This document shows positions 2,605 to 47,391 of a DNA stretch of 53,012 nucleotides, in pieces. The position numbers were made by a program, and so were the translations under genes. The stretch spans positions 1 to 53,012 of the forward strand of contig JAQTXC010000016.1 of NCBI GenBank assembly GCA_028689015.1. Direction: 5' to 3'. Every line of letters starts with the position of its first letter. Position 1 is the first letter of the stretch. Source of the stretch: Dechloromonas sp. GTDB lineage: Bacteria; Pseudomonadota; Gammaproteobacteria; Burkholderiales; Rhodocyclaceae. The notes below the pieces were generated by a model. The model saw only the letters and a list, made by a program, of their open reading frames with translations. It was not told the DNA's origin and did no database searches.

Positions 2605-4745
2605 CGCAATCCCCGCCGCCGCTCGCGTCGACGGTAGGCGATCAGCGCCGGCCACAAGGCCACCAGCACCAGTAGAAGGCCCGCCACTAGCGGCCAGATC
2701 ACCGGCTGATTCCAGGTTTTTCGTGCAATTTCGCGGTCGACCGCGTCAATACGCTGATATTTGAGCGTGTTGTTCCCGACATCATTGGGCTTGCGGTTTT
2801 TCAACCAGCGATGTCCGAGGGTGTAACTCTTGGGATGCAGGCCGAACACCCAGGGGGCATCCTGCTGCAAACGGTGATTCATTTGCCGGATGATGCCCAG
2901 GCGCTCCGGTGTGTTTTCCATGTACTTCATGCGAGCGAACAGGCGATCGAATTCTGTACGGGCATAATTTGAGGCATTTTCACCGCCGCGCCCTACTTTG
3001 CTTTCCTTGCCATCCAGCAAGAAAAAGAAATTCTCCGGGTCAGGATAATCGGCATTCCAGCCCAGGTAGTACAACTGCACAGCCCCCTTGCGAATTTTGT
3101 CCTGAAAACGATTGAAATCGGTCGAGCGCACCACCAGTTGAATGTCGATCTTGGCAAACTGACGGGTCAGCCAGTCCAGGCGTGATTTTTCGCCCATACC
3201 GCCGCTGGTCGTATCGAGATTGAGAACCAGCGGTTCGCCGGTCTTTTCATCACGCCCATTCGGGTAGCCCGCTTCAAGCATTAATTGCCTGGCCACCGTC
3301 ACCGGCTTGCGACGTGGCTTGCCATCCACCCAGTCGTAGACTGTGTGATTGAGGCCCGCCTCGCCACTTTCGTGACCAAAGATTCCCGGTGGCAAAGGCC
3401 CTTGCGCCGCAATACCTCGCCCATTTTGGAAAATCGAGATGAACTCTTCCTGATCAACGGCAATGGAAATGGCCTGTCGCAACTTGGTCGACCGCGGATC
3501 CAGCCCCCCCACCACGGGATCGAGCAAATTGAAACCCATGTAAAAAGTCGAGGTCTTGACCGAGGTCAGCAAGCGAATGCCTTTGTCACGCATCTCATCG
3601 GTCAGTCCGACATCGCCGCCCACATTGACGCGAACCGCTTGATCGAAGCTATCTGAAGAAATTCCCGAGGCATCGTAATAGCCCTGCAAAAACTTGTTCC
3701 AGTAGGGAATCGCTTCTTTTTCTCGGGAAAAAATGGCCCGATCGAGCAAGGGCAACGGCTTGCCACAATCGTCCAACAAGCCGGCTGCCTCATCCTCCAC
3801 CTCCCCCATACAGGGATAGGTTTCGCCGTAAAAATGGGGGTTGCGCGTCAACACCATGCGACGATTGGGATCGTTCTCGGTCAACATGAACGGCCCTGTC
3901 CCGACCGGCCACCAGTCGAGCGTCAGATTCTTTTCCGCCATGCCCGGCTGGGCATAAAAACGATCAACTTCACGCGGTACCGGCGCAAAAAAAGGCATGG
4001 CCAGCCAATACAGAAACTGAGGGTACTTGCCCTTGATGCGGATACGCCAGGTCAGCCCATCCACCTTCTGGACACCGGTGAGTGCATAGGCATCAAGATC
4101 CAGCCAAGCGGATGCGGGCATGCCGCGTGCCGACTGACTCAAGGTGTCACCCAGCCCCCCCAGACCCACAATCTTGTCGGCCATCATGCCAAAAATGGGG
4201 GAATGCAGACGCGGATGCGCCAGTCGCTTGATCTGGTAAATGTAGTCGTCGGCCCGCAATTCGCGGCTGCCATGCTCTGGAAAATCGGCGAGCGTTTGGC
4301 GGCTGGCAGCAACATTTTCTCCCAAATATCGCGGTCGACCGTGTTCGTCGACCGCAAAAGCCGGGTGCGGCTGAAAACGTATCCCCGGGCGCAGCTTGAG
4401 TTCGTAGACGCTTTCGGCAATCTGCTCGGCCGGCGCCGTCGCGGGCAAGGCACGGCCCTGAGCGTCGTAATAACGCAGTTCCGGCATCGACTGCAGGGTT
4501 GCCGGAATCAGTTCATAGGGTCGCTTCAGGTAGTGATACTGCAGGGGCGGCTCGTAAATCTGTGCCGTGAACGTGATTTCGTCCTCGGTATATGACTGGG
4601 CCGGATCAAGATGCTTGGGCCGGTCGGTGAAAGCCGTGTAGAGGATATTCTGACCACTATTGTGGGGCGGATAAGGATCATTCCAGGCCTCGCCACAGGC
4701 GGCCAGCAGCAGGATGAAAAAGAGGCTGATACAGAGCTTTTGCAT
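2601..4745 (-). CDS. Family 5 extracellular solute-binding lipoprotein with C-terminal membrane anchor
   Basis: A 714-residue protein resembling the peptide/oligopeptide (DppA/OppA, SBP family 5) binding proteins: LDPAQSYTEDEITFTAQIYEPL-type start, GTGPFMLTENDPN-like core, and NADYPDPENFFFLLDG near the C-terminus. A lipoprotein signal ends in the lipobox LLAAC with Cys17. Unusually, the C-terminus carries a hydrophobic helix (about residues 685-705, VAGLLLVLVALWPALIAY) followed by a basic tail. No permease or ATPase gene is nearby. The length exceeds the roughly 530 residues of ordinary DppA/OppA. It overlaps the downstream methyltransferase gene by 4 bases. Confidence 0.8.
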   Translation of the reverse strand: MQKLCISLFFILLLAACGEAWNDPYPPHNSGQNILYTAFTDRPKHLDPAQSYTEDEITFTAQIYEPPLQYHYLKRPYELIPATLQSMPELRYYDAQGRALPATAPAEQIAESVYELKLRPGIRFQPHPAFAVDEHGRPRYLGENVAASRQTLADFPEHGSRELRADDYIYQIKRLAHPRLHSPIFGMMADKIVGLGGLGDTLSQSARGMPASAWLDLDAYALTGVQKVDGLTWRIRIKGKYPQFLYWLAMPFFAPVPREVDRFYAQPGMAEKNLTLDWWPVGTGPFMLTENDPNRRMVLTRNPHFYGETYPCMGEVEDEAAGLLDDCGKPLPLLDRAIFSREKEAIPYWNKFLQGYYDASGISSDSFDQAVRVNVGGDVGLTDEMRDKGIRLLTSVKTSTFYMGFNLLDPVVGGLDPRSTKLRQAISIAVDQEEFISIFQNGRGIAAQGPLPPGIFGHESGEAGLNHTVYDWVDGKPRRKPVTVARQLMLEAGYPNGRDEKTGEPLVLNLDTTSGGMGEKSRLDWLTRQFAKIDIQLVVRSTDFNRFQDKIRKGAVQLYYLGWNADYPDPENFFFLLDGKESKVGRGGENASNYARTEFDRLFARMKYMENTPERLGIIRQMNHRLQQDAPWVFGLHPKSYTLGHRWLKNRKPNDVGNNTLKYQRIDAVDREIARKTWNQPVIWPLVAGLLLVLVALWPALIAYRRRERRRGLR
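2733..2744. repeat. 12-bp palindrome GCGGTCGACCGC, copy 1
   Basis: Perfect 12-base palindrome inside the 3' part of the solute-binding lipoprotein gene. Two further exact copies lie at 32669 and 33957, and many shorter versions are spread through the window. Confidence 0.9.
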
Positions 4746-4768
4746 GCCACGAAGTTTAACAAGATCTC

Positions 4769-4798
4769 TTGACCCACCGCCTGTGGATTGACCACAAT
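4769..4798 (+). promoter_or_regulatory. Candidate sigma-70 promoter for the peroxiredoxin gene
   Basis: TTGACC at 4769-4774 and CACAAT at 4793-4798 are separated by 18 bases, 33 bases before the ATG at 4832, in the divergent gap between the lipoprotein and peroxiredoxin genes. Base matches are moderate, so this is only a candidate. Confidence 0.4.
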
Positions 4799-4831
4799 GG
4801 GCTCGTCAGCAGCCACTTCAGCAGAGTCAAC

Positions 4832-5287
4832 ATGATCGATCAGCAATGTCCCGACTTTTCCCTCCCCACCACCAGCGGCCAGACATTCACGCTCAGCGAG
4901 CAGGCCGGCAAACTGGTGGTGATTTATTTTTACCCCAAGGACAGCACGCCGGGTTGTACCACCGAAGGTCAAAATTTCCGTGACCTGTTTGCGCAGTTTC
5001 TTGCGGTCGACGCGGTGATTCTCGGCATTTCCCGCGACAGCCTCAAGGCACACGAAAACTTCAAGGCCAAACAGGCCTTTCCGTTCGAACTGGGGTCGGA
5101 TGCCGACGAAACAGTTTGCCACCTGTTCGGCGTCATCAAGATGAAAAACATGTACGGCAAGCAGGTGCGCGGCATCGAACGCAGCACCTTCGTCATTGAC
5201 CGCAACCGCATCCTGCGTCGCGAATGGCGCGGCCTGAAAGTACCTGGCCACGCCCAGCAAGTCCTCGACTTTGTCCAGACGCTCTGA
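4832..5287 (+). CDS. Peroxiredoxin, BCP/PrxQ type
   Basis: A 151-residue AhpC/TSA-fold peroxiredoxin that would reduce hydrogen peroxide and organic hydroperoxides. The active-site segment is YPKDSTPGCTTEGQNF, with the peroxidatic Cys at residue 42. The second Cys that lies five residues later in E. coli BCP is replaced by Gln47; the other cysteines are Cys6 and Cys96. It would therefore act as a 1-Cys enzyme or use a different partner. The ATG at 4832 gives the normal length; the frame is open upstream to 4769, but that stretch overlaps the likely promoter. Confidence 0.88.
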   Translation: MIDQQCPDFSLPTTSGQTFTLSEQAGKLVVIYFYPKDSTPGCTTEGQNFRDLFAQFLAVDAVILGISRDSLKAHENFKAKQAFPFELGSDADETVCHLFGVIKMKNMYGKQVRGIERSTFVIDRNRILRREWRGLKVPGHAQQVLDFVQTL

Positions 5288-5317
5288 TTTCCACCTCCCG
5301 ACCCAAGGTCTCAGCCC

Positions 5318-6742
5318 ATGCCACGTAAACCTGCCGCTCCAAAAAAGCCCGCCATCACCAAGATTTTCGTGCTCGACACCAATGTCCTGATGCATGACCC
5401 GAGTTGCCTGTACCGCTTCGAGGAACATGATATTTTTATCCCGATCATGACCCTGGAGGAGCTGGACAACCACAAGAAGGGCATGACCGAAATTGCCCGT
5501 AATGCCCGTCAAGCATCGCGCATGCTCGACGAAATGCTGGTCGGTGATGATGTTGATATCGACGAAGGCATCGACCTGAACGGCCCCTCCAGCAAACTGG
5601 CCAGCGGCCGTCTGTTCCTGCAGACCGAAGCCATCAGCGCCGAATTGCCACAAGGCCTGCCAACCTCCAAGGTCGACAACCAGATCCTGTCGGTGGTCAT
5701 CCATCTGCAGAAAAAATTCCCCAAACGGCCGGTCATCCTGGTGTCAAAAGACATCAACATGCGCATCAAGTCGCGCGCACTCAACCTGCTGGCAGAAGAC
5801 TATTTCAACGACAAGGTGCTCGAAGACAGCGATCTGCTGTACACCGGTACCCGCGCCCTGCCTGAAAATTTCTGGGACAAGCACGCCAAGGGCATGGAGT
5901 CCTGGAAAAAGGAAAGCAAGACCTACTACAAGGTCAGCGGCCCCCTTTGCCCGGACATGTTGATCAACGAGTTTGTCTGGCTGGAAAAAGATGGTTTTTC
6001 AGCCATCGTCAAAGAAGCCGTCGGCAAGACCGCGACACTAGAGACGCTGATCGACTACACCCATCCGAAAAATGCCGTCTGGGGTATCACTGCCCGTAAT
6101 CGGGAACAGAATTTCGCCCTCAATCTGCTAATGAATCCGGACATCGATTTCGTCACCCTGCTCGGCCAGGCTGGCACCGGCAAGACCTTGCTCACCCTGG
6201 CCGCCGGCTTGAACCAAGTCCTGGAAAGCAAACAATTTGCTGAAATCATCATGACCCGGGTCACCGTCCCGGTCGGTGAGGACATCGGTTTTTTGCCCGG
6301 GACCGAGGAGGAAAAAATGGCGCCTTGGATGGGTGCCCTGGAGGACAACCTCGAGGTACTGACCCATACCGACGAGGCCGGTGGAGCCTATAGCGGCGAC
6401 TGGGGCAAGGCAGCGACGCATGACATCATCCGCTCACGCATCAAGGTTAAATCGCTGAACTTCATGCGTGGCCGCACTTTCATGAAAAAATACCTGATCA
6501 TCGACGAAGCGCAGAATCTGACGCCCAAGCAGATGAAAACGCTGATCACTCGAGCCGGGCCTGGCACCAAGGTAGTCTGTCTGGGCAATATTTCACAGAT
6601 CGACACCCCTTACCTAACCGAAGGCAGTTCTGGCCTGACTTATGTGGTCGACCGCTTCAAGGGTTGGCCACATTCGGGCCACATCACCTTGCAGCGCGGT
6701 GAGCGCTCGCGCCTCGCGGACCACGCAGCCGACGTGCTATAG
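5318..6742 (+). CDS. PIN domain-PhoH ATPase fusion
   Basis: A 474-residue protein of the PhoH2/YlaK type. The N-terminal PIN nuclease domain (about 15-150) shows VLDTNVLMHD with Asp20, an acidic TLEELD segment, KVDN (Asp120) and SKDINMR (Asp145). The C-terminal PhoH domain has Walker A GQAGTGKT at 283-290 and Walker B LIIDEAQN around Asp396. By family knowledge such proteins couple an RNA-unwinding ATPase to a ribonuclease. No antitoxin-like small gene precedes it. A 15-bp hairpin follows the stop. Confidence 0.9.
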   Translation: MPRKPAAPKKPAITKIFVLDTNVLMHDPSCLYRFEEHDIFIPIMTLEELDNHKKGMTEIARNARQASRMLDEMLVGDDVDIDEGIDLNGPSSKLASGRLFLQTEAISAELPQGLPTSKVDNQILSVVIHLQKKFPKRPVILVSKDINMRIKSRALNLLAEDYFNDKVLEDSDLLYTGTRALPENFWDKHAKGMESWKKESKTYYKVSGPLCPDMLINEFVWLEKDGFSAIVKEAVGKTATLETLIDYTHPKNAVWGITARNREQNFALNLLMNPDIDFVTLLGQAGTGKTLLTLAAGLNQVLESKQFAEIIMTRVTVPVGEDIGFLPGTEEEKMAPWMGALEDNLEVLTHTDEAGGAYSGDWGKAATHDIIRSRIKVKSLNFMRGRTFMKKYLIIDEAQNLTPKQMKTLITRAGPGTKVVCLGNISQIDTPYLTEGSSGLTYVVDRFKGWPHSGHITLQRGERSRLADHAADVL

Positions 6743-6755
6743 TAGAGGGCATCAA

Positions 6756-6788
6756 CAAGAGGGCCGTGTCATGGACACGGCCCTCTTG
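6756..6788 (+). terminator. Perfect 15-bp hairpin after the PhoH gene
   Basis: CAAGAGGGCCGTGTC (6756-6770) and its exact reverse complement (6774-6788) enclose a loop of only ATG. Three T residues follow, so it may act as a terminator for the upstream gene with a weak U-tract. The loop ATG is in frame with the next gene. Confidence 0.6.
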
Positions 6789-6818
6789 TTTCCGTCACGG
6801 TCAGCCCGGAGAACCCCC

Positions 6819-8054
6819 TTGAAACGTCGCGCTTTTCTGACGTCTGCTGCAGCCCTCTCGCTCTTCGTTACCGAAGTCTTTGCCGCCAAAAAAACATCCA
6901 CTGCCAGTAGCAGTAAAAAAGCCAAGGCCGCGACCAGCAAGAAAAAAACCACAACCCGCAACAAAAAGCCAGCGGTCAGCGCCGCACCAGCCAGCCAAGT
7001 CCGCTCAGCCGACATGCCCGTCACCGAGCGACCACCCGAAGGCACCTCAGCGTCGCGCCTGCCACCGGTCAAACCCCCAGAGTTACCCAATGAGTGGCGC
7101 ACCTACGAGGTCGTCACCCGCCTGGCCATTCCAGCCAGCGACCAGCCGCGACGCCTATGGACACCACTGCCATTCAGCCAGGACACGCTCTATCAGCGCA
7201 CCCTGGGTCATCGCTGGGAAGGCAATAGCCAACGTGCTGGCATGCACCGTCTGCCCGATGCCGAACTGGAAGTTTTTCAGGCCGAATGGGTGGCAGGAAT
7301 GGCTGCTGAACTCACCCTGACGACCTACATCACCACCGCTGACCGGCATTTTGACGTCACCAAACGCACCGTTGCCCCGGAACGTGAAGATATCCTGCGC
7401 CGCAACCTGCAATCGTCGCAACTCATTCCCAATGATGGACTGGCCCATCAGCTCGGCCAGCGTATTGTCGGCCGAGTGAAAGATCCGGTCGCCCAAGCCA
7501 AGGAGGTTTACGACTGGGTGACTGAAACCGCAATTTATGACCCCAGCCTGCCCGGTTGCGGCACTGGCGATGTTCATCACCAATTAATTACTGGCCAATA
7601 CGGCGGCAAATCGGCCGACATCAACGGTCTGTTCGTCGCCATCTGCCGGGCCATCGGCATTCCGGCCCGCTGTGTCTATGGCCTGCGAGTCGGGCCATCG
7701 CGCCTGTTCCGCAGCCTGGGGCTGAGCAGCGATGATGCGACAAGCGCACAACATGTCCGCGCCGAGTTCTACATACCTGGCTACGGCTGGATTCCGGTCG
7801 ACCCCAGCGACGTACGGCGCGCCATCGGACGAGAAGGACTGTCGGACCAGGACAGCCGTCTCAACGCCTTGAAGCGTGTTTTGTTTGGCGTCTGGGAAAT
7901 GAACTGGATTGCTTTCAATGTCGGTAGCGATATCAGCCTGCCGGAGCAGAACAAGCGCCAGCCTTTTTTCCTCTTTCCGCAATTCGATGGCCAGCCGACG
8001 ATCAGCAACGGCACGCCCCCGTATCGAATTACTGCCCGCCCGGTCCTGGGTTAA
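6819..8054 (+). CDS. Tat-exported transglutaminase-fold protein, catalytic Cys replaced
   Basis: About 411 residues from a TTG at 6819, preceded by a good ribosome binding site (CGGAGAA, six bases upstream). The N-terminus KRRAFLTSAAALSLF fits a twin-arginine signal, followed by a Lys/Ser/Ala-rich linker (about 25-60). The C-terminal half has the transglutaminase-core layout: the strand-helix GGKSADINGLFVAICRAIGI, then SAQHVRAEFY (His) and WIPVDPSD (Asp). Where the family has the catalytic Cys (GGKC), this protein has Ser265. An in-frame ATG at 6771 lies in the loop of a strong hairpin and is less likely as start. Confidence 0.8.
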   Translation: MKRRAFLTSAAALSLFVTEVFAAKKTSTASSSKKAKAATSKKKTTTRNKKPAVSAAPASQVRSADMPVTERPPEGTSASRLPPVKPPELPNEWRTYEVVTRLAIPASDQPRRLWTPLPFSQDTLYQRTLGHRWEGNSQRAGMHRLPDAELEVFQAEWVAGMAAELTLTTYITTADRHFDVTKRTVAPEREDILRRNLQSSQLIPNDGLAHQLGQRIVGRVKDPVAQAKEVYDWVTETAIYDPSLPGCGTGDVHHQLITGQYGGKSADINGLFVAICRAIGIPARCVYGLRVGPSRLFRSLGLSSDDATSAQHVRAEFYIPGYGWIPVDPSDVRRAIGREGLSDQDSRLNALKRVLFGVWEMNWIAFNVGSDISLPEQNKRQPFFLFPQFDGQPTISNGTPPYRITARPVLG

Positions 8055-8075
8055 GTCAGCGGCAGTCGGCCCGGC

Positions 8076-9482
8076 TTAGTTTTCTGAATTGACAAAGCCG
8101 CCGCTGGCCAGATTTTCAAAGCGCGTGTACTCCCCGATGAAGGCCATGCGTACCGTACCGGTCGGGCCGTTACGCTGCTTGCCGATAATGACCTCGGCAA
8201 TGCCCTTGTCGGGCGTATCCGGCTTGTAATACTCCTCACGGTACATCATCAAGATCACGTCAGCATCCTGCTCGATGGCGCCTGATTCACGCAAGTCGGA
8301 CATCATCGGCCGCTTGTCGGTCCGCTCCTCAACCTTACGCGAAAGTTGCGACAAGGCGACGATGGGGACTTGCAATTCCTTGGCCAGCGATTTGATCGAA
8401 CGCGAGATTTCGGACACTTCGGTCGCCCGGTTTTCGCCTTGACGGTTACCACTCATCAACTGAATGTAGTCGATGACCAGCAAACCGAGCTTGCCCCCAT
8501 ATTGCCGCGCCAAGCGACGTGCCCGGGCACGCAGATTAGCTGGACTCAAACCGCCAGTTTCATCAATATAAATCGGGGCTTCGTGGAGTTTTCCCAAGGC
8601 AAACGACAAGCGTGACCATTCGTCATCGGACATCCGGCCAGTCCGCAGACTTTGTGAATTCAGACGACCGATCGAGGCCAGCATCCGCATCGCCAATTGC
8701 GCGCCGCCCATTTCCATTGAAAAGACACCGACCGGCAAACCCGTGTCGACCGCAACATTCTCGGCAATATTGAGAGCAAAAGCCGTCTTACCCATCGACG
8801 GTCGACCGGCCACAATGATCAAATCACCCGGCTGGAAACCGGATGTTTTCTGGTCGAGATCGACAAAACCCGTCGGCACCCCGGTGATATCAGACGGATT
8901 ATCCCGGTCATGCAATTCCTGGATACGCTCGACTACCTGGGTCAACAAGGGATTGATATGAATGAAACCTTCGGCATGTCCAGCCCCTGCCTCGGCAATC
9001 TTGAAGATTTTCGACTCGGCCTCATCCAGCAAGCTGGCGGCATCACGACCCAGCGGATTCAGTGCATCTGAGGCGATCTCATCTGCCGTTGCCACCAGTT
9101 GGCGCAAGACTGCCCGCTCGCGGACAATTTCCGCATAGCGTCGAATATTGGCCGCGGATGGCGTATTAGCCGCCAGCTCACCCAAGTAGGCCAGACCACC
9201 GGTCTGTTCCCCCTCCCCGGCAGCATCCAGCGCTTCGGCAACAGTCACGACATCGGCAGGTTTTGCTTTGTCGAGCAGGTTGCGGATCTGGCGAAAAATG
9301 CGTCGGTGCTCATCACGATAAAAATCGGTTTCGGCAACCTGATCACCAATTCGGTCCCAGGCCTGGTTGTCGAGCAACAAACCGCCCAAGACGGACTGTT
9401 CAGCCTCTATCGAATGCGGCGGAACCCGCAACTGATCGAGACTGGGATCGAAGGATTTTGACTTTTGCGGACGCGTATTCAT
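8076..9482 (-). CDS. dnaB: Replicative DNA helicase DnaB
   Basis: A 468-residue hexameric helicase. The N-terminal DnaB domain (HSIEAEQSVLGGLLLD) is followed by the RecA-like domain with Walker A GRPSMGKTAFALN near residue 226 and Walker B LLVIDYIQLM. ATG 9482 begins MNTRPQ; the frame extends to a TTG at 9515 inside the rplI terminator, so the shorter form is chosen. It lies downstream of the S6-PriB-S18-L9 operon on the same strand, a common order in bacteria, with a terminator between. It converges on the transglutaminase-fold gene with a 21-base gap. Confidence 0.97.
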   Translation of the reverse strand: MNTRPQKSKSFDPSLDQLRVPPHSIEAEQSVLGGLLLDNQAWDRIGDQVAETDFYRDEHRRIFRQIRNLLDKAKPADVVTVAEALDAAGEGEQTGGLAYLGELAANTPSAANIRRYAEIVRERAVLRQLVATADEIASDALNPLGRDAASLLDEAESKIFKIAEAGAGHAEGFIHINPLLTQVVERIQELHDRDNPSDITGVPTGFVDLDQKTSGFQPGDLIIVAGRPSMGKTAFALNIAENVAVDTGLPVGVFSMEMGGAQLAMRMLASIGRLNSQSLRTGRMSDDEWSRLSFALGKLHEAPIYIDETGGLSPANLRARARRLARQYGGKLGLLVIDYIQLMSGNRQGENRATEVSEISRSIKSLAKELQVPIVALSQLSRKVEERTDKRPMMSDLRESGAIEQDADVILMMYREEYYKPDTPDKGIAEVIIGKQRNGPTGTVRMAFIGEYTRFENLASGGFVNSEN

Positions 9483-9495
9483 GGAGCGGGAGTTT

Positions 9496-9526
9496 AAATT
9501 AAAAAGGCCTCGCAAATTGCGAGGCC
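9496..9526 (-). terminator. Rho-independent terminator of the rpsF-rplI operon
   Basis: On the minus strand GGCCTCGC, a 5-base loop and GCGAGGCC (9506-9526) are followed by TTTTTAATTT. It ends the ribosomal protein operon just before dnaB. Confidence 0.88.
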
Positions 9527-9549
9527 CTCTGGGTTAGCGCGTTGTCCGC

Positions 9550-9996: not shown

Positions 9997-10014
9997 GTTT
10001 CGTCTCCTCGGAAA

Positions 10015-10591: not shown

Positions 10592-10615
10592 TCGTCAGTC
10601 TCCGTGAAACAAGAA

Positions 10616-10990: not shown

Positions 10991-11056
10991 GCATACTCCT
11001 TTTGGGATAAACCCTCCGTCATGCGTTCGCGGTAGGGCAAGGTGGAAAAGCCGACG

Positions 11057-11062: not shown

Positions 11063-11101
11063 ACCTGAATCGCCGGCCGGTGGTGAAACTTCGGGACATG
11101 A

Positions 11102-38422: not shown

Positions 38423-38448
38423 ACGGCCCTCTGCCTCTCCCCCCAGCC

Positions 38449-39611: not shown

Positions 39612-41371
39612 TGCTCAAGCAACTGTTCAAATTCAAAGGTGGGGTCAAGCCGCCCACCAACAAGACGCAATCGACCACCCTGCCGATTGCCGGCGCACCC
39701 ATCCCCTCACGCCTGGTCGTACCCCTGCACCAGAGCATCGGCGGCACGCCGCGCCCGGTCGTGCAGGCCGGCGACACCGTGTTGAAGGGCCAGTTGATCG
39801 GCGAAGCCGACGGCTGGATCTCGGCCGCCGTCCACGCCCCGACCTCGGGCACGGTGGTCGATGTCGGCATGTACGTTCAGCCGCACCCCTCCGGCCTGGA
39901 CGCGCAGTGCGTGGTCATCGAACCAGATGGCCGCGACCAGTGGATCGCACACGCGCCCTTCGACTACGCCCATGCCACGCCCGACGCAGTTCGCCATTAC
40001 CTGCAGCAATCCGGCGTCGTTGGCCTGGGCGGTGCGGTTTTCCCGACCCACGGCAAGTTGACCGCATCAAAGACGGTGCCGATGGATGAACTGATCATCA
40101 ACGGTGCCGAATGCGAACCTTTCATCACCTGCGACGACCTCCTGATGCGCGAGCGGGCCGAGGACGTCGTGCGTGGCATCGGCGTGTTCCGCGACCTGCT
40201 GAAGCCGAAGAAAGTGCTGATCGGCATCGAGGACAACAAACCGGAAGCCGCGGCCGCCATGCGGGCTGCGGTCAACGCGCTGGGCGAGCAATTTCTGGTC
40301 GTCCAGGTACCGACGCTGTATCCGGCTGGTGGCGCCAAGCAGCTGATCCGCGTCCTGACCGGCAAGGAAGTGCCGGCCAGTAAACGCTCGACCGATCTCG
40401 GCGTTCAGTGCTTCAACGTCGCCACGGCCTATACCGCCTGGTGCGCCATCGCCACCGGCCAACCCGTCATCTCGCGCCTGGTGACGGTCAGCGGCAACGT
40501 CCAGGCACCCCGCAATTACGAGGTGCTGATCGGCACCCCGATGGGCGAACTGCTGCAACTTGGCCAACCCCACCCGGACACCGACGGCATCGTCATGGGG
40601 GGGCCGATGATGGGCTTCCTGGTGCCGAATGACACGGTACCCGTCGTCAAGGCGACCAACTGCCTGATTGCCCATTCGGAACGCCTGTTTCCGCCCAAGG
40701 CCCCGGAAATGCCGTGCATTCGCTGCGGCGCCTGTGGCGAAGCCTGCCCGCACGAACTGCAACCGTTCGAACTGTACTGGAACGCCCGCGCCAGGAATTT
40801 CGGCAAGACCCAGGAATTCCATATCTTCGACTGTATCGAATGCGGCTGCTGTTCCTTCGTCTGTCCGTCACGCATCCCGCTGGTCCAGTACTTCCGCTTT
40901 GCCAAGAGCGAGATCTGGGCGCGCGAACGCGAAAAGAATGCCGCGGACGAAGCGAAGGTCCGTTTCGAATTCAAGCAATACCGGGAAGAACGCGAAAAGG
41001 CCGAGAAAGCCGAGAAACTGGCCAAGGCCGCCGCCGCCCAGGCTGCCAAGAAAGCCGCCGAGGCGGCCGCCATCGCCGCAGTTGAAAGCCCATCCGAGAC
41101 GCCCGCCCCGGCACCTACCGAGGCAACTGGCAACACCCCGCTGCCTGCGGTCGACCCGGCCCAGGACGCCAAAAAGGCGGCCATTGCCGCCGCCATGGCC
41201 CGCGCCAAGGCGCAGCGCGAAGCTGCCCAGCCGAAAAACACCGAAACCCTGAATGCCGACCAGGCCCGTGAACTGGCTGACATTGAAGCCCGTCGCCAAC
41301 AGGCGGGTATCGTCGAAGCCCGCACAGCCGTTCCCCCGCCCTCCGACGCGGCGACACAGAAAGCCGAATGA
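39611..41371 (+). CDS. rsxC: Rnf complex subunit RsxC
   Basis: A 586-residue protein with a barrel-sandwich N-terminus, a Complex I 51-kDa-like FMN/NADH domain (LGGAVFPTHGKL, INGAECEPFITCDD) and two 4Fe-4S motifs, CIRCGACGEACP and CIECGCCSFVCP. The C-terminal 150 residues are Ala/Lys/Glu-rich, probably coiled-coil, as in many RnfC. Start overlaps the rsxB stop as TGATG. Confidence 0.97.
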   Translation: MLKQLFKFKGGVKPPTNKTQSTTLPIAGAPIPSRLVVPLHQSIGGTPRPVVQAGDTVLKGQLIGEADGWISAAVHAPTSGTVVDVGMYVQPHPSGLDAQCVVIEPDGRDQWIAHAPFDYAHATPDAVRHYLQQSGVVGLGGAVFPTHGKLTASKTVPMDELIINGAECEPFITCDDLLMRERAEDVVRGIGVFRDLLKPKKVLIGIEDNKPEAAAAMRAAVNALGEQFLVVQVPTLYPAGGAKQLIRVLTGKEVPASKRSTDLGVQCFNVATAYTAWCAIATGQPVISRLVTVSGNVQAPRNYEVLIGTPMGELLQLGQPHPDTDGIVMGGPMMGFLVPNDTVPVVKATNCLIAHSERLFPPKAPEMPCIRCGACGEACPHELQPFELYWNARARNFGKTQEFHIFDCIECGCCSFVCPSRIPLVQYFRFAKSEIWAREREKNAADEAKVRFEFKQYREEREKAEKAEKLAKAAAAQAAKKAAEAAAIAAVESPSETPAPAPTEATGNTPLPAVDPAQDAKKAAIAAAMARAKAQREAAQPKNTETLNADQARELADIEARRQQAGIVEARTAVPPPSDAATQKAE

Positions 41372-42402
41372 TGTTTGCTCCCGCGCCTTTCCTGCTCAAG
41401 GATGCCAGCGTCAGCCAAGTGATGACGCAAGTCTGTATGGCCCTCATCCCGGGCATCGCCGCCTATAGCTGGCTGGTTGGTCCGGCCATCCTGATCCAGC
41501 TGACCATCGCCTCGCTCACCGCCCTGCTGGCCGAAGCGCTGATGCTTTACCTACGCGACAAACCATTGGCCCTGTTCCTGTCCGATGGTTCGGCTGTCGT
41601 CACCGCCTGGCTGATCGCCCTGACTTTTCCGCCACTCGCCCCGTGGTGGCTGGTCACCACCGGCACCGTCTTTGCCATTGTCTTCGCCAAGCACATTTAC
41701 GGCGGGCTGGGTCAGAACCCATTCAATCCCGCCATGGTCGCCTTTGCGGTCTGCATCGTCGCCTTCCCGGCACAAATGTCGCAATGGCCGAACATTGGCC
41801 TGGAACAAAGCCTGGTCGACCAATTAAACATCATTCTTGGCCTGGCACCGCGGGTTGACGCCCTCTCCGGCGCCACGCCACTCGATGCCATGAAGACGGC
41901 GCTCAAACTCGGCGATGGCCAGGTCGACATCGCCCACCTGCTGGCCAATCAGGACATTTACGGTAATTTTGCCGGTCGTGGCTGGGAGTGGGTCGCCACC
42001 GGCTACCTGCTTGGCGGCCTGTGGCTGTGGCAACGCAAGCTGATTACCTGGCACGCCCCATTTGCCTTTCTCGCCGCCCTGATCAGCCTTTCCGGCGCGC
42101 TCTGGCTTTATCAACCGGCCACCTTTGCCAGCCCACTCTTCCACCTGCTATCCGGTGGCGCCATGCTGGGGGCCTTCTTCATCGTCACCGACCCGGTGTC
42201 CGGCTGCACCACGCCGCGCGGCAAGCTGATCTTCGGCGCCGGCGTCGGCCTGCTCGCCTACATCATCCGGGTGTTCGGCGGCTACCCCGATGGCGTGGCC
42301 TTTGCCATCTTGTTGATGAACCTGTCGGCACCGGTCATTGACCTGCTGACCCAGCCGAAAATCTTCGGCCTCAAGGCTGCCGGCAAGGGAGAACGGCGAT
42401 GA
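41368..42402 (+). CDS. rsxD: Rnf complex subunit RsxD
   Basis: A 344-residue integral membrane protein with about nine helices and the flavinylation motif SGATPLDAMKT, where the Thr carries FMN by a phosphoester bond in characterised RnfD. Two adjacent ATG codons (41368 and 41371) overlap the rsxC stop; either may be used. Confidence 0.97.
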   Translation: MMFAPAPFLLKDASVSQVMTQVCMALIPGIAAYSWLVGPAILIQLTIASLTALLAEALMLYLRDKPLALFLSDGSAVVTAWLIALTFPPLAPWWLVTTGTVFAIVFAKHIYGGLGQNPFNPAMVAFAVCIVAFPAQMSQWPNIGLEQSLVDQLNIILGLAPRVDALSGATPLDAMKTALKLGDGQVDIAHLLANQDIYGNFAGRGWEWVATGYLLGGLWLWQRKLITWHAPFAFLAALISLSGALWLYQPATFASPLFHLLSGGAMLGAFFIVTDPVSGCTTPRGKLIFGAGVGLLAYIIRVFGGYPDGVAFAILLMNLSAPVIDLLTQPKIFGLKAAGKGERR

Positions 42403-43067
42403 GTACGTCGCGCGAATTTTCTGCGCCGGGCATGGCCCTCCGCACGGCGGCCATCCTGTTCATCTTCGTCATCATCTTCACTGCTCTGCTTTCTGCGGCC
42501 TATCAGTGGACCAAGCCGGCCATCGATGCCTCAGCCCTTGAAGAAAAGATGAAGCTGCTCAATGAGGTTCTGCCCGCAGGAAGTTACGACAACGTTCTGC
42601 TCGATGACGTAATCATCCTGCCGCCCACCGCCGAACTCGGCCTCAAGGAACCCAGCACCTTGTACCGGGCGCGCCGTGCCGGGCAGCCGGGCGCACTGAT
42701 TTTCGAAGCCGCCGCCACCGATGGTTACGCCGGTCGCATCAAGCTGTTGATCGCCCTGGGCGCCGACGGCACGGTGGCCGGGGTGCGCGTCACCCAGCAC
42801 AAGGAAACACCGGGCCTGGGCGATTACATCGAGCCCAAAAAAGACCGCAACAAAACGCGGCCATGGATCCACCAGTTTTCCGGCCTGTCGCTACAGAACA
42901 CAGTCGACAAGGACTGGAAGGTCAAAAAGGATGGTGGCCACCTCGATTATTACGCTGGTGCCACCATTAGCCCGCGCGCCATTGCCAAAGCCGTGCGCAA
43001 GGCCGTGCTGTGGGCGACTGAACACAATGATCGCCTGTTTGCCAACAAGGAGGCCAAGCAGCCATGA
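42399..43067 (+). CDS. rsxG: Rnf complex subunit RsxG
   Basis: A 222-residue protein with one N-terminal helix and a periplasmic FMN-binding domain (VRVTQHKETPGLGDYIEPKK). The FMN-attachment motif reads YYAGATIS instead of the usual [S/T]GATx[S/T]; the acceptor Thr is kept but the residue before Gly is Ala. ATGA overlap with rsxD. Confidence 0.96.
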   Translation: MSTSREFSAPGMALRTAAILFIFVIIFTALLSAAYQWTKPAIDASALEEKMKLLNEVLPAGSYDNVLLDDVIILPPTAELGLKEPSTLYRARRAGQPGALIFEAAATDGYAGRIKLLIALGADGTVAGVRVTQHKETPGLGDYIEPKKDRNKTRPWIHQFSGLSLQNTVDKDWKVKKDGGHLDYYAGATISPRAIAKAVRKAVLWATEHNDRLFANKEAKQP

Positions 43068-43750
43068 CGCGTGACGAATTGCTGACCATTGCCCGCAATG
43101 GCCTGTGGAAACAGAATACCTCGCTGGTGCAGGTGCTCGGCCTCTGCCCGCTGCTGGCCGTCACAACCAATGCGGTCAATGGCATCATGCTGTCCCTGGC
43201 CACCATCCTGGTCATGGCCCTGGCCAACGTCGCCGTCGCCTCGCTGCGCAATCTGATTCCACACGAAATCCGCATCCCGGTCTTCATCCTCATCGTTGCC
43301 GCCCTGGTCACCGTGGTCGACCTGCTGTTCAACGCCAATTTGCACGAACTCTATCTGGTACTCGGCATTTTCATCCCGCTGATCGTCACCAACTGCATCG
43401 TACTGGCCCGCGTCGAAGCCTTCGCCGCCAAGAACCCCCCTTTGCAATCCACCGTCGATGGCTTGTTCATGGGGCTGGGCATGCTGTGGACGCTGGGTTT
43501 GCTTGGCGGGCTGCGCGAACTGCTCGGCAGCGGTACCTTGCTCGGCGGTATCGACATGGTTTTCCCCGCCTTGTCACCCATTCAACTGCTGCCGGAAAGT
43601 TACCCCGGCTTCCTGCTGGCCCTGCTGCCACCCGGTGCCTTCATCCTGCTCGGCTGCATGATTGCCTGGAAAAACTGGCTGGATGCCCGCGCCGCTGCCC
43701 GGGCCCGCCAGCAACCGCCAGCACCGGTCGAGGCCATCGGCTGCCATTGA
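43064..43750 (+). CDS. rsxE: Rnf complex subunit RsxE
   Basis: A 228-residue membrane protein paralogous to RsxA, with LGLCPLLAVTTNAVNG and FIPLIVTNCIVLARVEAFA, and an Ala/Arg/Gln-rich C-terminal tail. ATGA overlap with rsxG. Completes the operon. Confidence 0.97.
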   Translation: MTRDELLTIARNGLWKQNTSLVQVLGLCPLLAVTTNAVNGIMLSLATILVMALANVAVASLRNLIPHEIRIPVFILIVAALVTVVDLLFNANLHELYLVLGIFIPLIVTNCIVLARVEAFAAKNPPLQSTVDGLFMGLGMLWTLGLLGGLRELLGSGTLLGGIDMVFPALSPIQLLPESYPGFLLALLPPGAFILLGCMIAWKNWLDARAAARARQQPPAPVEAIGCH

Positions 43751-44862
43751 CCCGACCATTCGCCTCGCCCAGCGTGCGTGTCGCCCAAATTCGCGACCAC
43801 CTCCAGGCCCAGGGGGCCAAGGCGCCGCACATCGACCGCATCCTGCGAGCCTGGCTTAATGCGCGCCCGCTCGATGCCGGGCCGCGCCACCAGCCCGCCG
43901 AGAGCTTTCTCCCTCTGGCCGTCCGCCAGGCCTTACCGGCCCTGGCCGGAGAACTCGACCAATTGGCCGTGGTCGTTTCCGAACATCCAGATGGCGAGGG
44001 TGCAGCCCGCCTGCTGGTCAAGCTAAGCGACCAGCAACTGGTAGAAAGCGTCTTGCTGCCGCGCCAAGGCTTGTGCGTTTCGACGCAGATCGGCTGCGCG
44101 GTGGGATGCACTTTCTGCATGACCGGTCGCGAAGGTCTGATCCGTCAGGTTAGCAGTGTCGAAATGCTCGCCCAGTTCGTCCTGGCCCGCCGCCAGCGTC
44201 CCATTCGTCGTGTCGTTTTCATGGGCATGGGTGAGCCGTCACACAATCTGGACAACGTCCTGGAAACCATCGAATTACTGGGCACGGCTGGCGGTATCGG
44301 TCACAAGAACCTGGTGTTTTCGACTGTTGGCGATCATCGTGTATTCGAGCGCCTGCCGCAGGGCCCGGTCGTACCGGCTTTGGCCTTGTCGCTACACAGC
44401 ACGCGGGCTGAACTCCGCGCCCAACTCCTGCCGAAGGCCGCCGCGATTTCGCCTGAAGAGCTGGTCGACCGTGCCGAAACCTATGCCCGTCGCACCGGCT
44501 ATCCCATCCAGTATCAATGGACCCTACTCGCCGGCCTCAATGACAGCCTGGATGAAATGGACGGCATCGTCCGCCTGCTGCATGGGAAGTACGCGATCAT
44601 GAACCTGATTCCGTACAACAGCACCGCCGCCCTCGACTTCCAGCGCCCGGCGCTGGCGCACATCACCACCCTGGCCCGCTACCTACACAGTCAGGGTATC
44701 CGGACCACGGTACGTAATTCAGCGGGACAGGACGTGGAGGGTGGTTGCGGTCAACTACGGGCACGGGCCGAAAATGCCCGACGACCAGGGGGGGCTCAAT
44801 CTGCCAAATCGCTCTCGCCAGCCACGGCCACGCAATTACGACCCCGCCGCTTGGCGACGTAA
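43747..44862 (+). CDS. RlmN/Cfr-family radical SAM methyltransferase, divergent
   Basis: About 371 residues from a TTG that overlaps the rsxE stop (TTGA). The radical SAM cluster motif CX3CX2C is at Cys117, 121 and 124, preceded by Cys110 (LCVSTQ), and the conserved C-terminal Cys334 (GGCGQL) corresponds to the methyl-carrying Cys355 of E. coli RlmN. FMGMGEPSHNLDNVLE and LSLHSTRAELRAQLLP replace the usual RlmN wording, so it is probably a paralogue rather than the housekeeping A2503 enzyme. GTG 43774 is an alternative start. The 3' end overlaps the opposing GGDEF gene by 67 bases. Confidence 0.82.
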   Translation: MTRPFASPSVRVAQIRDHLQAQGAKAPHIDRILRAWLNARPLDAGPRHQPAESFLPLAVRQALPALAGELDQLAVVVSEHPDGEGAARLLVKLSDQQLVESVLLPRQGLCVSTQIGCAVGCTFCMTGREGLIRQVSSVEMLAQFVLARRQRPIRRVVFMGMGEPSHNLDNVLETIELLGTAGGIGHKNLVFSTVGDHRVFERLPQGPVVPALALSLHSTRAELRAQLLPKAAAISPEELVDRAETYARRTGYPIQYQWTLLAGLNDSLDEMDGIVRLLHGKYAIMNLIPYNSTAALDFQRPALAHITTLARYLHSQGIRTTVRNSAGQDVEGGCGQLRARAENARRPGGAQSAKSLSPATATQLRPRRLAT

Positions 44863-46214
44863 CAAGCTTCATCAGCCTGGCGCAGCAGGCTGCTTTCATT
44901 GTCGTCCACCTTAAGTTCGGCGACGCCGATGCTAACCGTGCAACGGATCGGATCGCCTTGTTCGGTACGCACTGACTGCTCGGCAAAACGTAAGCGCAAA
45001 CGCTCAGCCATGCGCCGCCCCGCCGGCAGACCGATTTCCGGCAATAACACAACGAACTCCTCGCCCCCATAACGAAATGCACTGTCGGCACTCCGCAGAC
45101 ACAAACCGATCACCTCGGCCAGGGCTTGCAACACTTTGTCACCCTCTGGGTGACCATAACGATCATTGATCTGCTTGAAATGGTCGCAATCGAGGACCAG
45201 CAGGCTAAGCGGCCGGCGATAGCGGACAGCACGCTCCAGCTCCTGCTGCAATCGCTGCTGCAAGGCACGCGAATTCAGCAAGCCAGTCAGGGCATCGGTA
45301 TGACTCAGGCGCCGGTAGCGTTCCTCGCTCTCGCGCAAGGCCTCCTCAGCCCGTCGCCGCTCGGTCACATCCTGCAGGGTTTCAATCGCCCCGATAACCC
45401 TTCCCTGTAAATCGCGAATGGGCGCTGCCGTGAAATACAGCCAACGGCCGTTATCACCGAAATGCGGAAAGAAGTCTTCCGCCTCATACGCCCCGCCCAC
45501 CAGACGCGACAACTGAAAACGACCGTGGTACAAGCGATCCACGTCGTTCTCCTGAGCCCCATTAAGAACCAGGTCGGCCAGTATCGGCCGTGCAGCAGGA
45601 TAAAACGCCTGCCACTGGCGCTGCGTACGCAACATGTCGCTCGCTGCATAACCGGTCAACACCTCGCAAGCCCGGTTCCAGTGGGTGACCTGATGATCCT
45701 GGTCAATGACCAGCATGGCCACCGACGAACCATCGACAATCTGGGCCAGATACGCCTCCTTGTCGCGCAGCGCTTCTTCGGCCTGGCGCCGCTGGGTGAC
45801 GTCTTGCAGGGTTTCGATGGCGCCGATCAGGCACCCTGCCTCATCACGCAACGGCGCTGCAGTGAAATACAACCAGCGCCCATCATCACCAAAGGCAGGG
45901 AAAAAATCTTCGGCCTCAACCGCTCCTTCAATCAGCACGGAGGCTTTGAACTTGTCCGGGTAATACTCGGCAATGGCTGCCGGCTGAGCCTCATCAATAA
46001 TCAGGTCAGCCAGAATGGGGCGCGGCTCATCATAGAAAGCGCGCCACTGCGCGCTTGTCCCAATCATGCTGCTCGCCGACTGGCCGGTCAGTACGGCACA
46101 GGCATGGTTCCAGTACAAGACGCGATGCGCGGTATCGATCACAATGGTCGCCACCGGGCTACAGTCGATCACACGACCGAACAAGCCGGCACTTGACAGC
46201 AAATCACTGGTCAT
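44796..46214 (-). CDS. Tandem-PAS diguanylate cyclase
   Basis: A 472-residue cytoplasmic protein with two PAS-PAC modules (about 10-145 and 150-285) and a C-terminal GGDEF domain. The active site reads RYGGEEF, and an RxxD inhibitory site (RSAD) lies five residues before it, so it should make c-di-GMP with product inhibition. The two PAS modules share long near-identical blocks (for example EDFFP-F-GD-GRWLYFTAAP and GAIETLQDVT-RR-AEEALR). ATG 46214 follows GGGGGTG; a GTG at 46220 is also in frame. Confidence 0.92.
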   Translation of the reverse strand: MTSDLLSSAGLFGRVIDCSPVATIVIDTAHRVLYWNHACAVLTGQSASSMIGTSAQWRAFYDEPRPILADLIIDEAQPAAIAEYYPDKFKASVLIEGAVEAEDFFPAFGDDGRWLYFTAAPLRDEAGCLIGAIETLQDVTQRRQAEEALRDKEAYLAQIVDGSSVAMLVIDQDHQVTHWNRACEVLTGYAASDMLRTQRQWQAFYPAARPILADLVLNGAQENDVDRLYHGRFQLSRLVGGAYEAEDFFPHFGDNGRWLYFTAAPIRDLQGRVIGAIETLQDVTERRRAEEALRESEERYRRLSHTDALTGLLNSRALQQRLQQELERAVRYRRPLSLLVLDCDHFKQINDRYGHPEGDKVLQALAEVIGLCLRSADSAFRYGGEEFVVLLPEIGLPAGRRMAERLRLRFAEQSVRTEQGDPIRCTVSIGVAELKVDDNESSLLRQADEACYVAKRRGRNCVAVAGESDLAD

Positions 46215-46306
46215 AATCACCCCCGCTGTTCGCTCGGTAGACTTTTAATCGCTCCAATATCGCGTATTCTGCGCCCCAAGACAATCACTCATTACTCAAA
46301 CTTCCC

Positions 46307-46939
46307 GTGAATAAGGCCGACGTCGAACAATTTTTCAGCCGCTTGCGCGATGCCAACCCTGCACCGACCACCGAGCTGAATTACCAGACTCCTTTTCAAC
46401 TGCTGATCGCCGTTATTCTGTCCGCCCAGGCCACCGATGTCGGAGTCAACAAAGCCACCGCGCGCCTTTTCCCGGTGGCTGGCACGCCGCAGGCCATTCT
46501 GGCCCTGGGTGAAGAAGGCCTGAGCGAGTACATCAAAACCATCGGCCTTTACCGCACCAAGGCCCGCAATGTCATCGCCACCTGCCAGCAATTGATCGAA
46601 CTGCACGACGGCAAGGTACCCGCCGAGCGCGCCGCTTTGGAAGCGCTACCGGGCGTCGGTCGGAAGACCGCCAATGTGGTGCTCAATACCGCCTTTGGCC
46701 AGCCGACCATTGCCGTCGATACGCATATTTTCCGGCTTGGCAACCGCACCGGACTAGCGCCGGGAAAAACCGTCCTGGCCGTCGAAGAAAAACTGCTGCG
46801 CGTCGTCCCCGCCGCCTTCAAGCAGGATGCCCATCACTGGCTGATCCTGCATGGCCGATACGTCTGCAAAGCCCGCAAACCAGATTGCCCGGCCTGCGTG
46901 ATACGCGATCTCTGCCGCTTTCGCGGCAAAACCCTTTGA
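46307..46939 (+). CDS. nth: Endonuclease III
   Basis: A 210-residue DNA glycosylase/AP lyase for oxidised pyrimidines. Helix-hairpin-helix LPGVGRKTANVV with catalytic Lys120, Asp138 in VDTHIFRLGNRTGL, and the iron-sulfur motif CX6CX2CX5C at the C-terminus. GTG start. In many proteobacteria nth directly follows rnfE; here two genes lie between. Confidence 0.97.
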   Translation: MNKADVEQFFSRLRDANPAPTTELNYQTPFQLLIAVILSAQATDVGVNKATARLFPVAGTPQAILALGEEGLSEYIKTIGLYRTKARNVIATCQQLIELHDGKVPAERAALEALPGVGRKTANVVLNTAFGQPTIAVDTHIFRLGNRTGLAPGKTVLAVEEKLLRVVPAAFKQDAHHWLILHGRYVCKARKPDCPACVIRDLCRFRGKTL

Positions 46940-46959
46940 CCTTCAATCAGACACCAAGC

Positions 46960-47391
46960 ATGTTCAACCCTACCCGAGAGCAGGTTCGCCACTTTTTTTG
47001 CGATGCCTGGAAAAAACACCAAGAGCGCCTGCCCCTGGTCGGCGCTGAAGTAACGGCCGCCGATATCGTGGCCCGCCATCCGGAATATCACGGGCTACTT
47101 AATGAGCCCGATACCGCGGTCGACCACGACTGGACACCAGAAAAGGGACAGATGAATCCATTTTTGCATCTATCACTCCACCTGGCCATCCACGAACAAT
47201 TGAGCATCGACCAGCCGGTGGGCGTTCGTGCTGCCTACCAGCGCCTGCTGGCCCGGATGCCGGCACACGATGCCGAACACGTACTGCTCGAATGCCTCGG
47301 CGAGACTGTCTGGCACGCCCAGCGGCACGGCCAAGCTATGGACGCGCAAGCCTATATCGAGCGCATACAGCGTCAATCCACACCTTGCTGA
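46960..47391 (+). CDS. DUF1841 family protein
   Basis: A 143-residue protein of unknown function starting MFNPTREQVRHFFCDAWKKH with NPFLHLSLHLAIHEQLSIDQP and the C-terminal ECLGETVWHAQR, which define DUF1841. The several conserved His residues could bind metal but nothing is established. 20 bases after nth, probably cotranscribed. Confidence 0.9.
   Translation: MFNPTREQVRHFFCDAWKKHQERLPLVGAEVTAADIVARHPEYHGLLNEPDTAVDHDWTPEKGQMNPFLHLSLHLAIHEQLSIDQPVGVRAAYQRLLARMPAHDAEHVLLECLGETVWHAQRHGQAMDAQAYIERIQRQSTPC

What the first reader, a model, noticed from the sequence alone, without database searches (positions are those of the whole stretch)
2733..47125. A recurrent GTCGAC-centred palindrome scattered through the window
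GCGGTCGACCGC, a perfect 12-base palindrome, occurs exactly at 2733, 32669 and 33957. Its 8-base core GGTCGACC occurs at least 14 times by hand count: 2735, 3486, 4333, 6646, 8800, 19302, 28295, 32671, 33959, 41149, 41814, 43315, 44463 and 47118. At about 60% G+C I would expect one or two. One-arm versions (GTCGACCGC) are more common still, and they fall in several reading frames and between genes, which argues against simple codon preference. This resembles the highly iterated palindromes known from cyanobacteria (HIP1), with a different sequence. It could be a methylase target, a nucleoid-protein site or a repair/recombination signal.
Basis: partly seen in the sequence, partly recalled or inferred. 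Interest (0 to 1): 0.72.

Follow-up and report, generated by a model that had tools for sequence, protein, structure and literature searches.

The report
Uptake-signal-like DNA word in Dechloromonas/Azonexus
The repeated palindrome is the visible tip of a directional DNA word, a short core plus A/T-rich patches at fixed distance, scattered about once per kilobase through this genome and many relatives, and it looks like the 'self' label that some bacteria use when importing DNA.

Summary
But the palindrome is not the unit. The over-represented word is asymmetric, CGGTCRAC (reverse complement GTYGACCG), 4-5 times above synonymous-codon shuffles and 8-12 times above expectation between genes. 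In 554 of 861 cores from eleven high genomes at least four of positions +23 to +27 are A/T (background 8-10%), with a weaker A/T patch one helical turn nearer. Substitutions at five core positions abolish this. The palindrome is two cores in inverted overlap.

The composite has 802 matches here against 9 for its mirror control, and at most 20 in each of 368 other genomes of the class. In the genus 41 of 76 genomes are high and 35 low, some low ones with apparent relics. Window cores are kept in 39 of 108 comparisons with high relatives and 8 of 101 with low ones.

Architecture, strictness, spacing and lack of strand bias resemble the uptake signal sequences of Pasteurellaceae, which share GCGGTCAA. 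Best explanation: an uptake signal in a third lineage. Uptake was not tested, and no gene was found that separates high from low genomes.

The parts
2733..2761 (+). complete composite: core RCGGTCNAC plus A/T tract ATATT; forms the 2735 palindrome with an inverted core at 2736-2743 (-), tract AAAAC
4314..4342 (-). complete composite (tract AAAAT); inverted overlap with core 4332-4339 (+), tract CAAAA = palindrome at 4333
8799..8808 (.). palindrome of two inverted cores: 8799-8806 (+) with A/T tract AATCA, 8801-8808 (-) without a tract
16432..16460 (-). complete composite, core GCGGTCGAC, tract AAAAT
23743..23771 (-). complete composite, non-palindromic core GCGGTCAAC, tract AAAAA
27025..27053 (-). 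complete composite, core GCGGTCAAC, tract ATTTA
29521..29549 (-). complete composite, core GCGGTCAAC, tract AAAAA
32669..32697 (+). complete composite between predicted genes (tract AAAAT); inverted overlap with core 32672-32679 (-), tract TTAGA = palindrome at 32671
33940..33985 (.). two complete composites in inverted overlap (palindrome at 33959): + strand 33957-33985, tract AAAAA; - strand 33940-33968, tract AAAAT
34839..34867 (-). complete composite with the tolerated T at core position 5 (ACGGTCTAC), tract AAAAT
   Evidence: tolerance of position 5
35157..35185 (-). complete composite, core ACGGTCGAC, tract AATTT
38155..38183 (+). complete composite, core GCGGTCAAC, tract ATTAT
44747..44775 (+). 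complete composite between predicted genes, core GCGGTCAAC, tract AAAAT
51821..51849 (-). complete composite, core GCGGTCGAC, tract AAATT
1379..52277 (.). extent of the 54 CGGTCRAC cores of the window (both strands); 34 of the 54 have at least 4 of 5 A/T at +23..+27, 20 do not
   Evidence: number of cores; listing with tracts, from which the 34 were counted

Best explanation
The palindrome is a by-product of an oriented, composite DNA word: core R-CGGTC-N-AC, a weak A/T patch about +12 to +15 and a strong A/T tract at +23 to +27, so that core and patches lie roughly one helical turn apart. About half of the genomes of the genus (Azonexus/Dechloromonas) carry it in tens to hundreds of complete copies. 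It most likely works like the uptake signal sequences (USS) of Pasteurellaceae. A minor pilin or other surface receptor of a competent cell would bind the core and bend or open the DNA at the A/T tracts; fragments bearing the word would be imported through the competence system (ComEC) and recombined; biased uptake of word-bearing alleles would drive the word up, in either orientation, to about one core per kilobase. Shown here: the composite, its excess, its limits in the genus, its conservation, its likeness to USS, and competence and pilin genes in the genus. Inferred: receptor binding, biased uptake, molecular drive.
For: Core: GTCGACCG 3.4x and GTTGACCG 3.8x over order 3; other single substitutions 0.41-1.52x except GTAGACCG 2.1x. 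4.7x and 4.0x over synonymous shuffles. Top 8-mer between predicted genes: CGGTCGAC 55 against 4.6, CGGTCAAC 27 against 3.5. Tract: at least 4 of 5 A/T at +23..+27 in 554 of 861 cores of eleven high genomes, with a weaker peak for windows starting +11..+14; seen between genes and in all six coding registers of this genome. Substitutions at core positions 1, 2, 3, 6, 7 bring the tract to 0.06-0.13. Composite 802 against 9 mirror matches here and at most 20 in 368 other genomes of the class. Window cores kept in 39 of 108 comparisons with ten high and 8 of 101 with ten low relatives; control 8-mers 0.206 and 0.208. Spacing more even than random, CV 0.847 against 0.973 +- 0.057, 0.6% of simulations as low. 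No strand bias: 210 leading, 231 lagging; 167 sense, 190 antisense. Extended USS AAAGTGCGGTCAATTTT and AACAAGCGGTCAAATTT (PMC12616744, passages) contain GCGGTCAA. USS are described with A/T segments 3' of the core at roughly single helical turns, strict consensus, more regular spacing, some inverted pairs and non-coding preference (PMC1626085, passages). ComEC in 71 of 76 genomes, ComP_DUS-family pilins in 70 of 76.
Against: No uptake or transformation data for these organisms were found. ComEC and ComP_DUS-family pilins occur in high and low genomes alike, so no gene was found that follows the word, and loss of the word is not explained. In Pasteurellaceae the first A/T segment lies directly 3' of the core; here it is weak and further away. 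The base before CGGTC is A in 28% of non-palindromic cores, so the core is not strictly GCGGT. The shared GCGGTCAA may be coincidence. In G042 only 3 of 10 palindromic cores have the tract.
Confidence: 0.72

Rival explanations
1. Binding sites of an unknown chromosome-organising or global regulatory protein that needs a GC core plus A/T tracts for bending (as IHF does with its own, different site; recalled), spread through the genome by selection.
For: Composite with A/T tracts at helical spacing, even spacing, conservation among high genomes and enrichment between genes would all fit. No tested gene ties the word to uptake.
Against: Substitutions at five core positions leave no excess of the tract, stricter than is usual for such sites (so argued for USS in PMC1626085, passage). 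357 of 441 cores lie inside predicted genes. The word comes and goes between related species. The core matches USS.
Confidence: 0.16
2. A HIP1-type iterated palindrome made and kept by an orphan DNA methyltransferase and methylation-directed repair (the model of Elhai 2015).
For: Palindromic sub-form; sporadic distribution among relatives; core density about 926 per Mb (2658 in 2.87 Mb), within the 500-2500 per Mb given for HIPs (PMC4390886, section 2.3). HIP genomes have a putative matching methylase (same paper, section 2.5.3).
Against: The unit is asymmetric; GTTGACCG, never palindromic, is equally enriched. A/T tracts two helical turns away are not predicted by a methylase. PF01555 methylases are absent in 18 of 41 high genomes, this one included (tally). 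Other methylase families were not searched.
Confidence: 0.05
3. A Chi-like recombination octamer or a KOPS-like strand-orienting sequence.
For: Asymmetric 8-mer, several-fold over-represented, about one per kilobase.
Against: No strand bias: 210 leading against 231 lagging in this genome, 42 against 54 in G042, 66 against 76 in G038, strand judged from the GC skew of each stretch. Neighbouring cores share orientation in 200 and differ in 220 cases, 41 of the latter being palindromes. Fixed A/T tracts are not known for either kind (recalled).
Confidence: 0.03
4. Codon-pair preference or a context-dependent mutation or repair bias.
For: Registers are not equally used: 143 of 357 genic cores fall in one of six, and two-base context explains part of the excess.
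Against: An excess of 2.6-2.7x remains after context-keeping synonymous shuffles, the excess is strongest between genes, and the A/T tract occurs in every register. One-base differences at aligned sites are of many kinds.
Confidence: 0.02

Closest known systems
Uptake signal sequence (USS) of Pasteurellaceae (Hin and Apl dialects)
   Same: Asymmetric core followed 3' by two A/T-rich segments at about helical spacing; both extended dialects contain GCGGTCAA; about one core per kb; strict consensus; both strands; more even spacing; inverted pairs; enrichment between genes.
   Different: Found in Azonexus/Dechloromonas; the word continues with AC, tolerates any base at position 5 and takes A as well as G before CGGTC; the strong tract is the distal one; inverted pairs mostly overlap without a loop; no uptake data.
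DNA uptake sequence (DUS) of Neisseriaceae
   Same: Oriented word in thousands of copies, present in some and absent from other related genera (PMC3630211, abstract and section on dialects). ComP-type minor pilin as receptor (from the Pfam family name, and recall).
   Different: DUS is a continuous word with a CTG core; [quoted passage not shown]
HIP1 and alternate HIPs of cyanobacteria
   Same: Highly iterated, lineage-limited, can appear as a GC-rich palindrome; similar density.
   Different: HIP1 is itself palindromic and goes with methylases for its core (abstract); here the unit is oriented and composite.

Membership tests
USS (Pasteurellaceae type) | Short core in several hundred to thousands of copies, far above expectation | tested here: met
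   2658 GTYGACCG cores genome-wide; composite 802 against 9 mirror matches
USS (Pasteurellaceae type) | Two A/T-rich segments 3' of the core at roughly single helical turns | tested here: met
   peaks for 5-base windows starting +11..+14 (21-30%) and +22/+23 (61-64%) against about 8%; the nearer patch is weak and further from the core than in Haemophilus
USS (Pasteurellaceae type) | Inner core GCGGT | tested here: inconclusive
   CGGT fixed, but the base before it is G 0.55, A 0.28, C 0.12, T 0.06 in 701 non-palindromic cores, and A goes with the tract as often as G (0.75 and 0.68)
USS (Pasteurellaceae type) | Perfect copies outnumber one-off copies | tested here: inconclusive
   With tract: 554 perfect cores against 396 summed over 23 one-off variants, about 310 of these expected at 8.5% background. 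Without regard to the tract, one-off words outnumber perfect ones (3665 against 861). Sums
USS (Pasteurellaceae type) | Competence machinery and type IV pilins present | tested here: met
   ComEC 71 of 76; ComP_DUS-family pilins 70 of 76; two loci with such pilins in this genome. ComEC is split in some genomes, high ones included; this genome's copy spans a contig break. Not exclusive to high genomes
USS (Pasteurellaceae type) | Preferential uptake of DNA that carries the word | not testable with these tools
   needs an uptake experiment
HIP1 / alternate HIP | Unit is a palindrome | tested here: not met
   GTTGACCG, not palindromic, equally enriched; commoner than GTCGACCG in G042
HIP1 / alternate HIP | Methyltransferase for the word in genomes that carry it | tested here: inconclusive
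   PF01555 absent in this genome and in 17 other high genomes (tally); other methylase families not searched
Chi / KOPS | Bias to one replication strand | tested here: not met
   210 against 231; 42 against 54; 66 against 76 (strand judged by GC skew of each 20-kb stretch or window)
DUS (Neisseriaceae type) | Continuous word with CTG core, no conserved flanking segments | tested here: not met
   core RCGGTCNAC has no CTG; A/T segments present

The most novel reading that the evidence does not exclude
A third, independent lineage with a DNA uptake signal: environmental Dechloromonas/Azonexus species have a USS of the same multipart design and nearly the same core as Pasteurellaceae, either by convergence on one pilin-DNA binding mode or by transfer of the receptor. 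It spread by molecular drive and has been lost several times, leaving decaying relics in sister species.
Probability: 0.62. Interest if true: 0.85.

Novelty: new variant of a known kind. Interest (0 to 1): 0.76.

Why it matters
Strong sequence preference in DNA uptake is described for species of two families, Pasteurellaceae and Neisseriaceae (PMC7811141, passage). A third case, in bacteria recalled as free-living denitrifiers and perchlorate reducers, with high and low sister species side by side, would let one test how uptake signals arise, spread and decay, and would point to the receptor by comparison of sister species. A near-identical core with similar tract geometry in a distant lineage would suggest that the receptor's binding mode, not history, dictates the signal.

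Tried and rejected
Codon preference: rejected by two kinds of synonymous shuffle. HIP1-like palindrome: rejected because the non-palindromic form is as enriched. HincII-type symmetric target GTYRAC: GTCAACCG is not enriched (30 against 32). PF01555 methylases: do not follow the word (23 of 41 high, 14 of 35 low, my tally). Chi/KOPS: no strand bias. Terminator hairpins as in Haemophilus USS pairs: of 17 core pairs within 80 bp with both cores between predicted genes, 16 are loopless palindromes and one is a looped pair. Other iterated words ('dialects') in low genomes: nothing comparable stood out in 200-kb samples of four low genomes; AGGAAATC leads in G047 (14 against 1.9 between genes, 41 against 10.7 overall) and was not pursued, and samples of that size could miss a weak word. 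ComEC as the switch: missing from 1 high and 4 low genomes, the five with a completeness below 90%. ComP_DUS-family pilins as the switch: missing from 1 high and 5 low genomes, some of them fragmentary; individual pilin types were not compared. Rfam on the window: no match at gathering thresholds.

Literature: the word itself (one and two papers, unrelated by title); uptake sequences or transformation together with Dechloromonas, Azonexus, Rhodocyclales or Betaproteobacteria (1 paper, 2 papers, 15 listed of 918, 12 listed of 92); uptake signal sequence with over-representation (12 papers). In the rows listed I saw no report of an uptake signal in this genus. Only listings were read for these, apart from the papers cited, and only open-licence PMC papers are covered.

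Limits of the counts: genes were predicted by my own scripts; in relatives sampled at 200 kb, missed genes inflate the 'intergenic' share. The RnfC tree is one gene with 36 genus rows of 76 (22 high, 14 low), chosen by match score and contig length. High and low were split at 100 GTTGACCG per Mb on both strands, in a gap from 89 to 113; G106 and G089 are weakest among the high. The control 8-mers have 5 of 8 G+C, while GTCGACCG has 6. Genome sizes of relatives are rounded by the tool. The maxima for searches were read by eye from the tables.
Full report
GGTCGACC is in the window 15 times and the 12-mer three times; one site was missed (7796) and one is off by a base (28294). The genome (2.87 Mb, 86 contigs) holds 683 and 80 copies. 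The excess survives an order-3 Markov model (113 against 41.6 in 453 kb) and synonymous shuffling (88 against 20.1).

THE PALINDROME IS NOT THE UNIT. The sample is 20 stretches of 20 kb plus the window. Ranked by excess over order 3, CGGTCGAC (283 against 83) and CGGTCAAC (158 against 41) lead all 8-mers; GGTCGACC comes sixth. Single-base neighbours of GTCGACCG and GTTGACCG lie at 0.41-1.52 times expectation, apart from GTAGACCG (19 against 9). The word is asymmetric, and CGGTCAAC cannot be part of the palindrome. In coding sequence the two forms are 4.7 and 4.0 times above within-gene synonymous shuffles, and 2.6 and 2.7 times above shuffles that also keep two bases on each side. Between predicted genes (61.5 kb) CGGTCGAC is the top 8-mer, 55 against 4.6, with CGGTCAAC at 27 against 3.5. 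Of 441 cores, 167 lie sense, 190 antisense, 82 between genes and 2 across gene ends.

A COMPOSITE WITH A/T TRACTS. Cores were aligned as CGGTCRAC (C = position 0) in 1.05 Mb from eleven high genomes. At least 4 of positions +23 to +27 are A/T in 554 of 861 cores (64%), against about 10% of random 5-mers and 7-10% in most flanking windows. A weaker patch appears for windows starting +11 to +14 (21-30%). From -50 to +80 the only other rises are 0.12-0.19 near -19 to -15, the mirror expected from palindromes, and 0.16 next to the core at -7/-6. In this genome the tract is found in 78% of cores between genes and in 53-86% in the six coding registers; overall 65% here, 62% in G042 and 68% in G038, against 32, 19, 30 and 20% in four low genomes with 22-46 cores each. 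The tract reports which cores are real: substitutions at positions 1, 2, 3, 6 and 7 leave 0.06-0.13; positions 0 and 4 leave 0.10-0.26; position 5 accepts other bases (T 0.53, C 0.38, few sites); before the core A (0.75) and G (0.68) are preferred to C (0.40) and T (0.21). In 1.0 Mb from ten low genomes there are 197 cores, 20% with the tract.

THE PALINDROME EXPLAINED. GTCGAC is self-complementary, so two inverted cores can share it: CGGTCGACCG. The 453-kb sample has 41 such pairs. In the window, of 15 GGTCGACC sites five hold two cores (2735, 4333, 8800, 32671, 33959), four of these with a tract on both sides; eight hold one core; two (41814, 43315) hold none. Of 80 palindromic cores in the sample 71% have the tract, of 20 in G038 60%, but of 10 in G042 only 30%. 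Of the window's 54 cores 34 carry the tract (counted).

WHERE IT OCCURS. The composite RCGGTCNAC-N15-WWWWW has 802 matches in this genome against 9 for the pattern read backwards; in 368 other genomes of the class, drawn evenly, the largest number I read is 20. In the family, GTTGACCGYR has 702 matches here (245 per Mb); in 285 genomes of 67 other genera the highest I read is about 27 per Mb. In the genus 41 of 76 genomes have 33-279 composites per Mb and 35 have 1-20 per Mb. Some low genomes exceed their mirror control, for example G005 86 against 2 and G045 63 against 1, which may be relics of a lost system; others (G016 5 against 6, G103 3 against 4) show nothing. On the RnfC tree the high/low label needs 6 changes (shuffled mean 11.3, 1 of 500 as low; at least 4 forced by well-supported branches): clustered, but gained or lost repeatedly. 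Named relatives place the genus at Azonexus/Dechloromonas (inferred).

IT IS MAINTAINED. In a region alignable to ten high and ten low genomes, window cores are kept in 39 of 108 comparisons with high and 8 of 101 with low genomes; control 8-mers are kept equally, 0.206 and 0.208. One-base losses are of many kinds, though T to C at the second base is the commonest in low genomes (9). Composite sites are spaced more evenly than random (CV 0.847 against 0.973 +- 0.057; 6 of 1000 simulations as low), and so are cores (0.868 against 0.990 +- 0.047). No replication-strand bias was seen in three high genomes.

WHAT IT WORKS LIKE. The paper on USS evolution (PMC1626085, passages) gives for USS an anomalously strong consensus, A/T segments 3' of the core spaced at roughly single helical turns, somewhat regular spacing, some inverted pairs and preference for non-coding DNA. 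Similar features are seen here, with the differences listed above. The extended dialects AAAGTGCGGTCAATTTT and AACAAGCGGTCAAATTT (PMC12616744, passages) share GCGGTCAA with the word. In Haemophilus the average spacing is about 1,000 bp, the inner core is indispensable and A/T segments contribute less (PMC7811141, passages). By my own rough estimate an 8-base match of a degenerate 11-mer to known uptake words could arise by chance at the per-cent level, so geometry and strictness weigh more than the letters. The genus has ComEC (71 of 76) and ComP_DUS-family pilins (70 of 76). This genome has two loci with such pilins, one of them with GspH-, PilV- (just under its cut-off) and PilW-like proteins. 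Neither gene separates high from low.

WHAT IS SHOWN AND WHAT IS INFERRED. Shown: a strict, oriented, multipart word; its excess beyond codons and Markov context; its limitation, in the genomes searched, to part of one genus; its maintenance; its likeness to USS. Inferred: that it is read by a surface receptor in DNA uptake and spread by molecular drive. Rivals, chiefly a nucleoid protein, remain possible. Membership of USS is not claimed, because its functional definition, preferential uptake, could not be tested.

Noticed in passing
G043, loci L229 (from about 2694) to L230 (to about 15156): comEC is split by an insert of about 32 kb that encodes a serine recombinase next to the break, a tyrosine integrase, an IS66 transposase and a viral-type DNA polymerase B. 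In G002 the two parts of comEC lie about 34 kb apart; that insert was fetched but not opened.
   Followed up: partly
window's genome, end of L228 and start of L227: In this genome comEC lies across two contig ends that overlap by exactly 127 bases, so it is broken at least by the assembly, near the place where G043 has its insert.
   Followed up: partly
G038 sample (L135-L144): About 90 copies of words such as CTATCCCC and CGGGGATA within 200 kb, between predicted genes; probably a long CRISPR array.
   Followed up: no
453-kb sample of the window's genome: CTCGAG, CAGCTG, GGGCCC and CGATCG are depleted (0.38-0.52 of order-3 expectation), perhaps restriction avoidance.
   Followed up: no
sampled genomes of the genus: CCTGCTCG is in the top list of over-represented 8-mers in 6 of 7 samples and CTGGCCGA in 5 of 7, high and low alike. 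In this genome they exceed within-gene synonymous shuffles 2.4 and 1.9 times, but only 1.5 and 1.2 times when local context is kept.
   Followed up: partly
G047 sample (L105-L114): AGGAAATC is over-represented (41 against 10.7 overall, 14 against 1.9 between predicted genes) in a genome that lacks the word; could be another iterated word.
   Followed up: no
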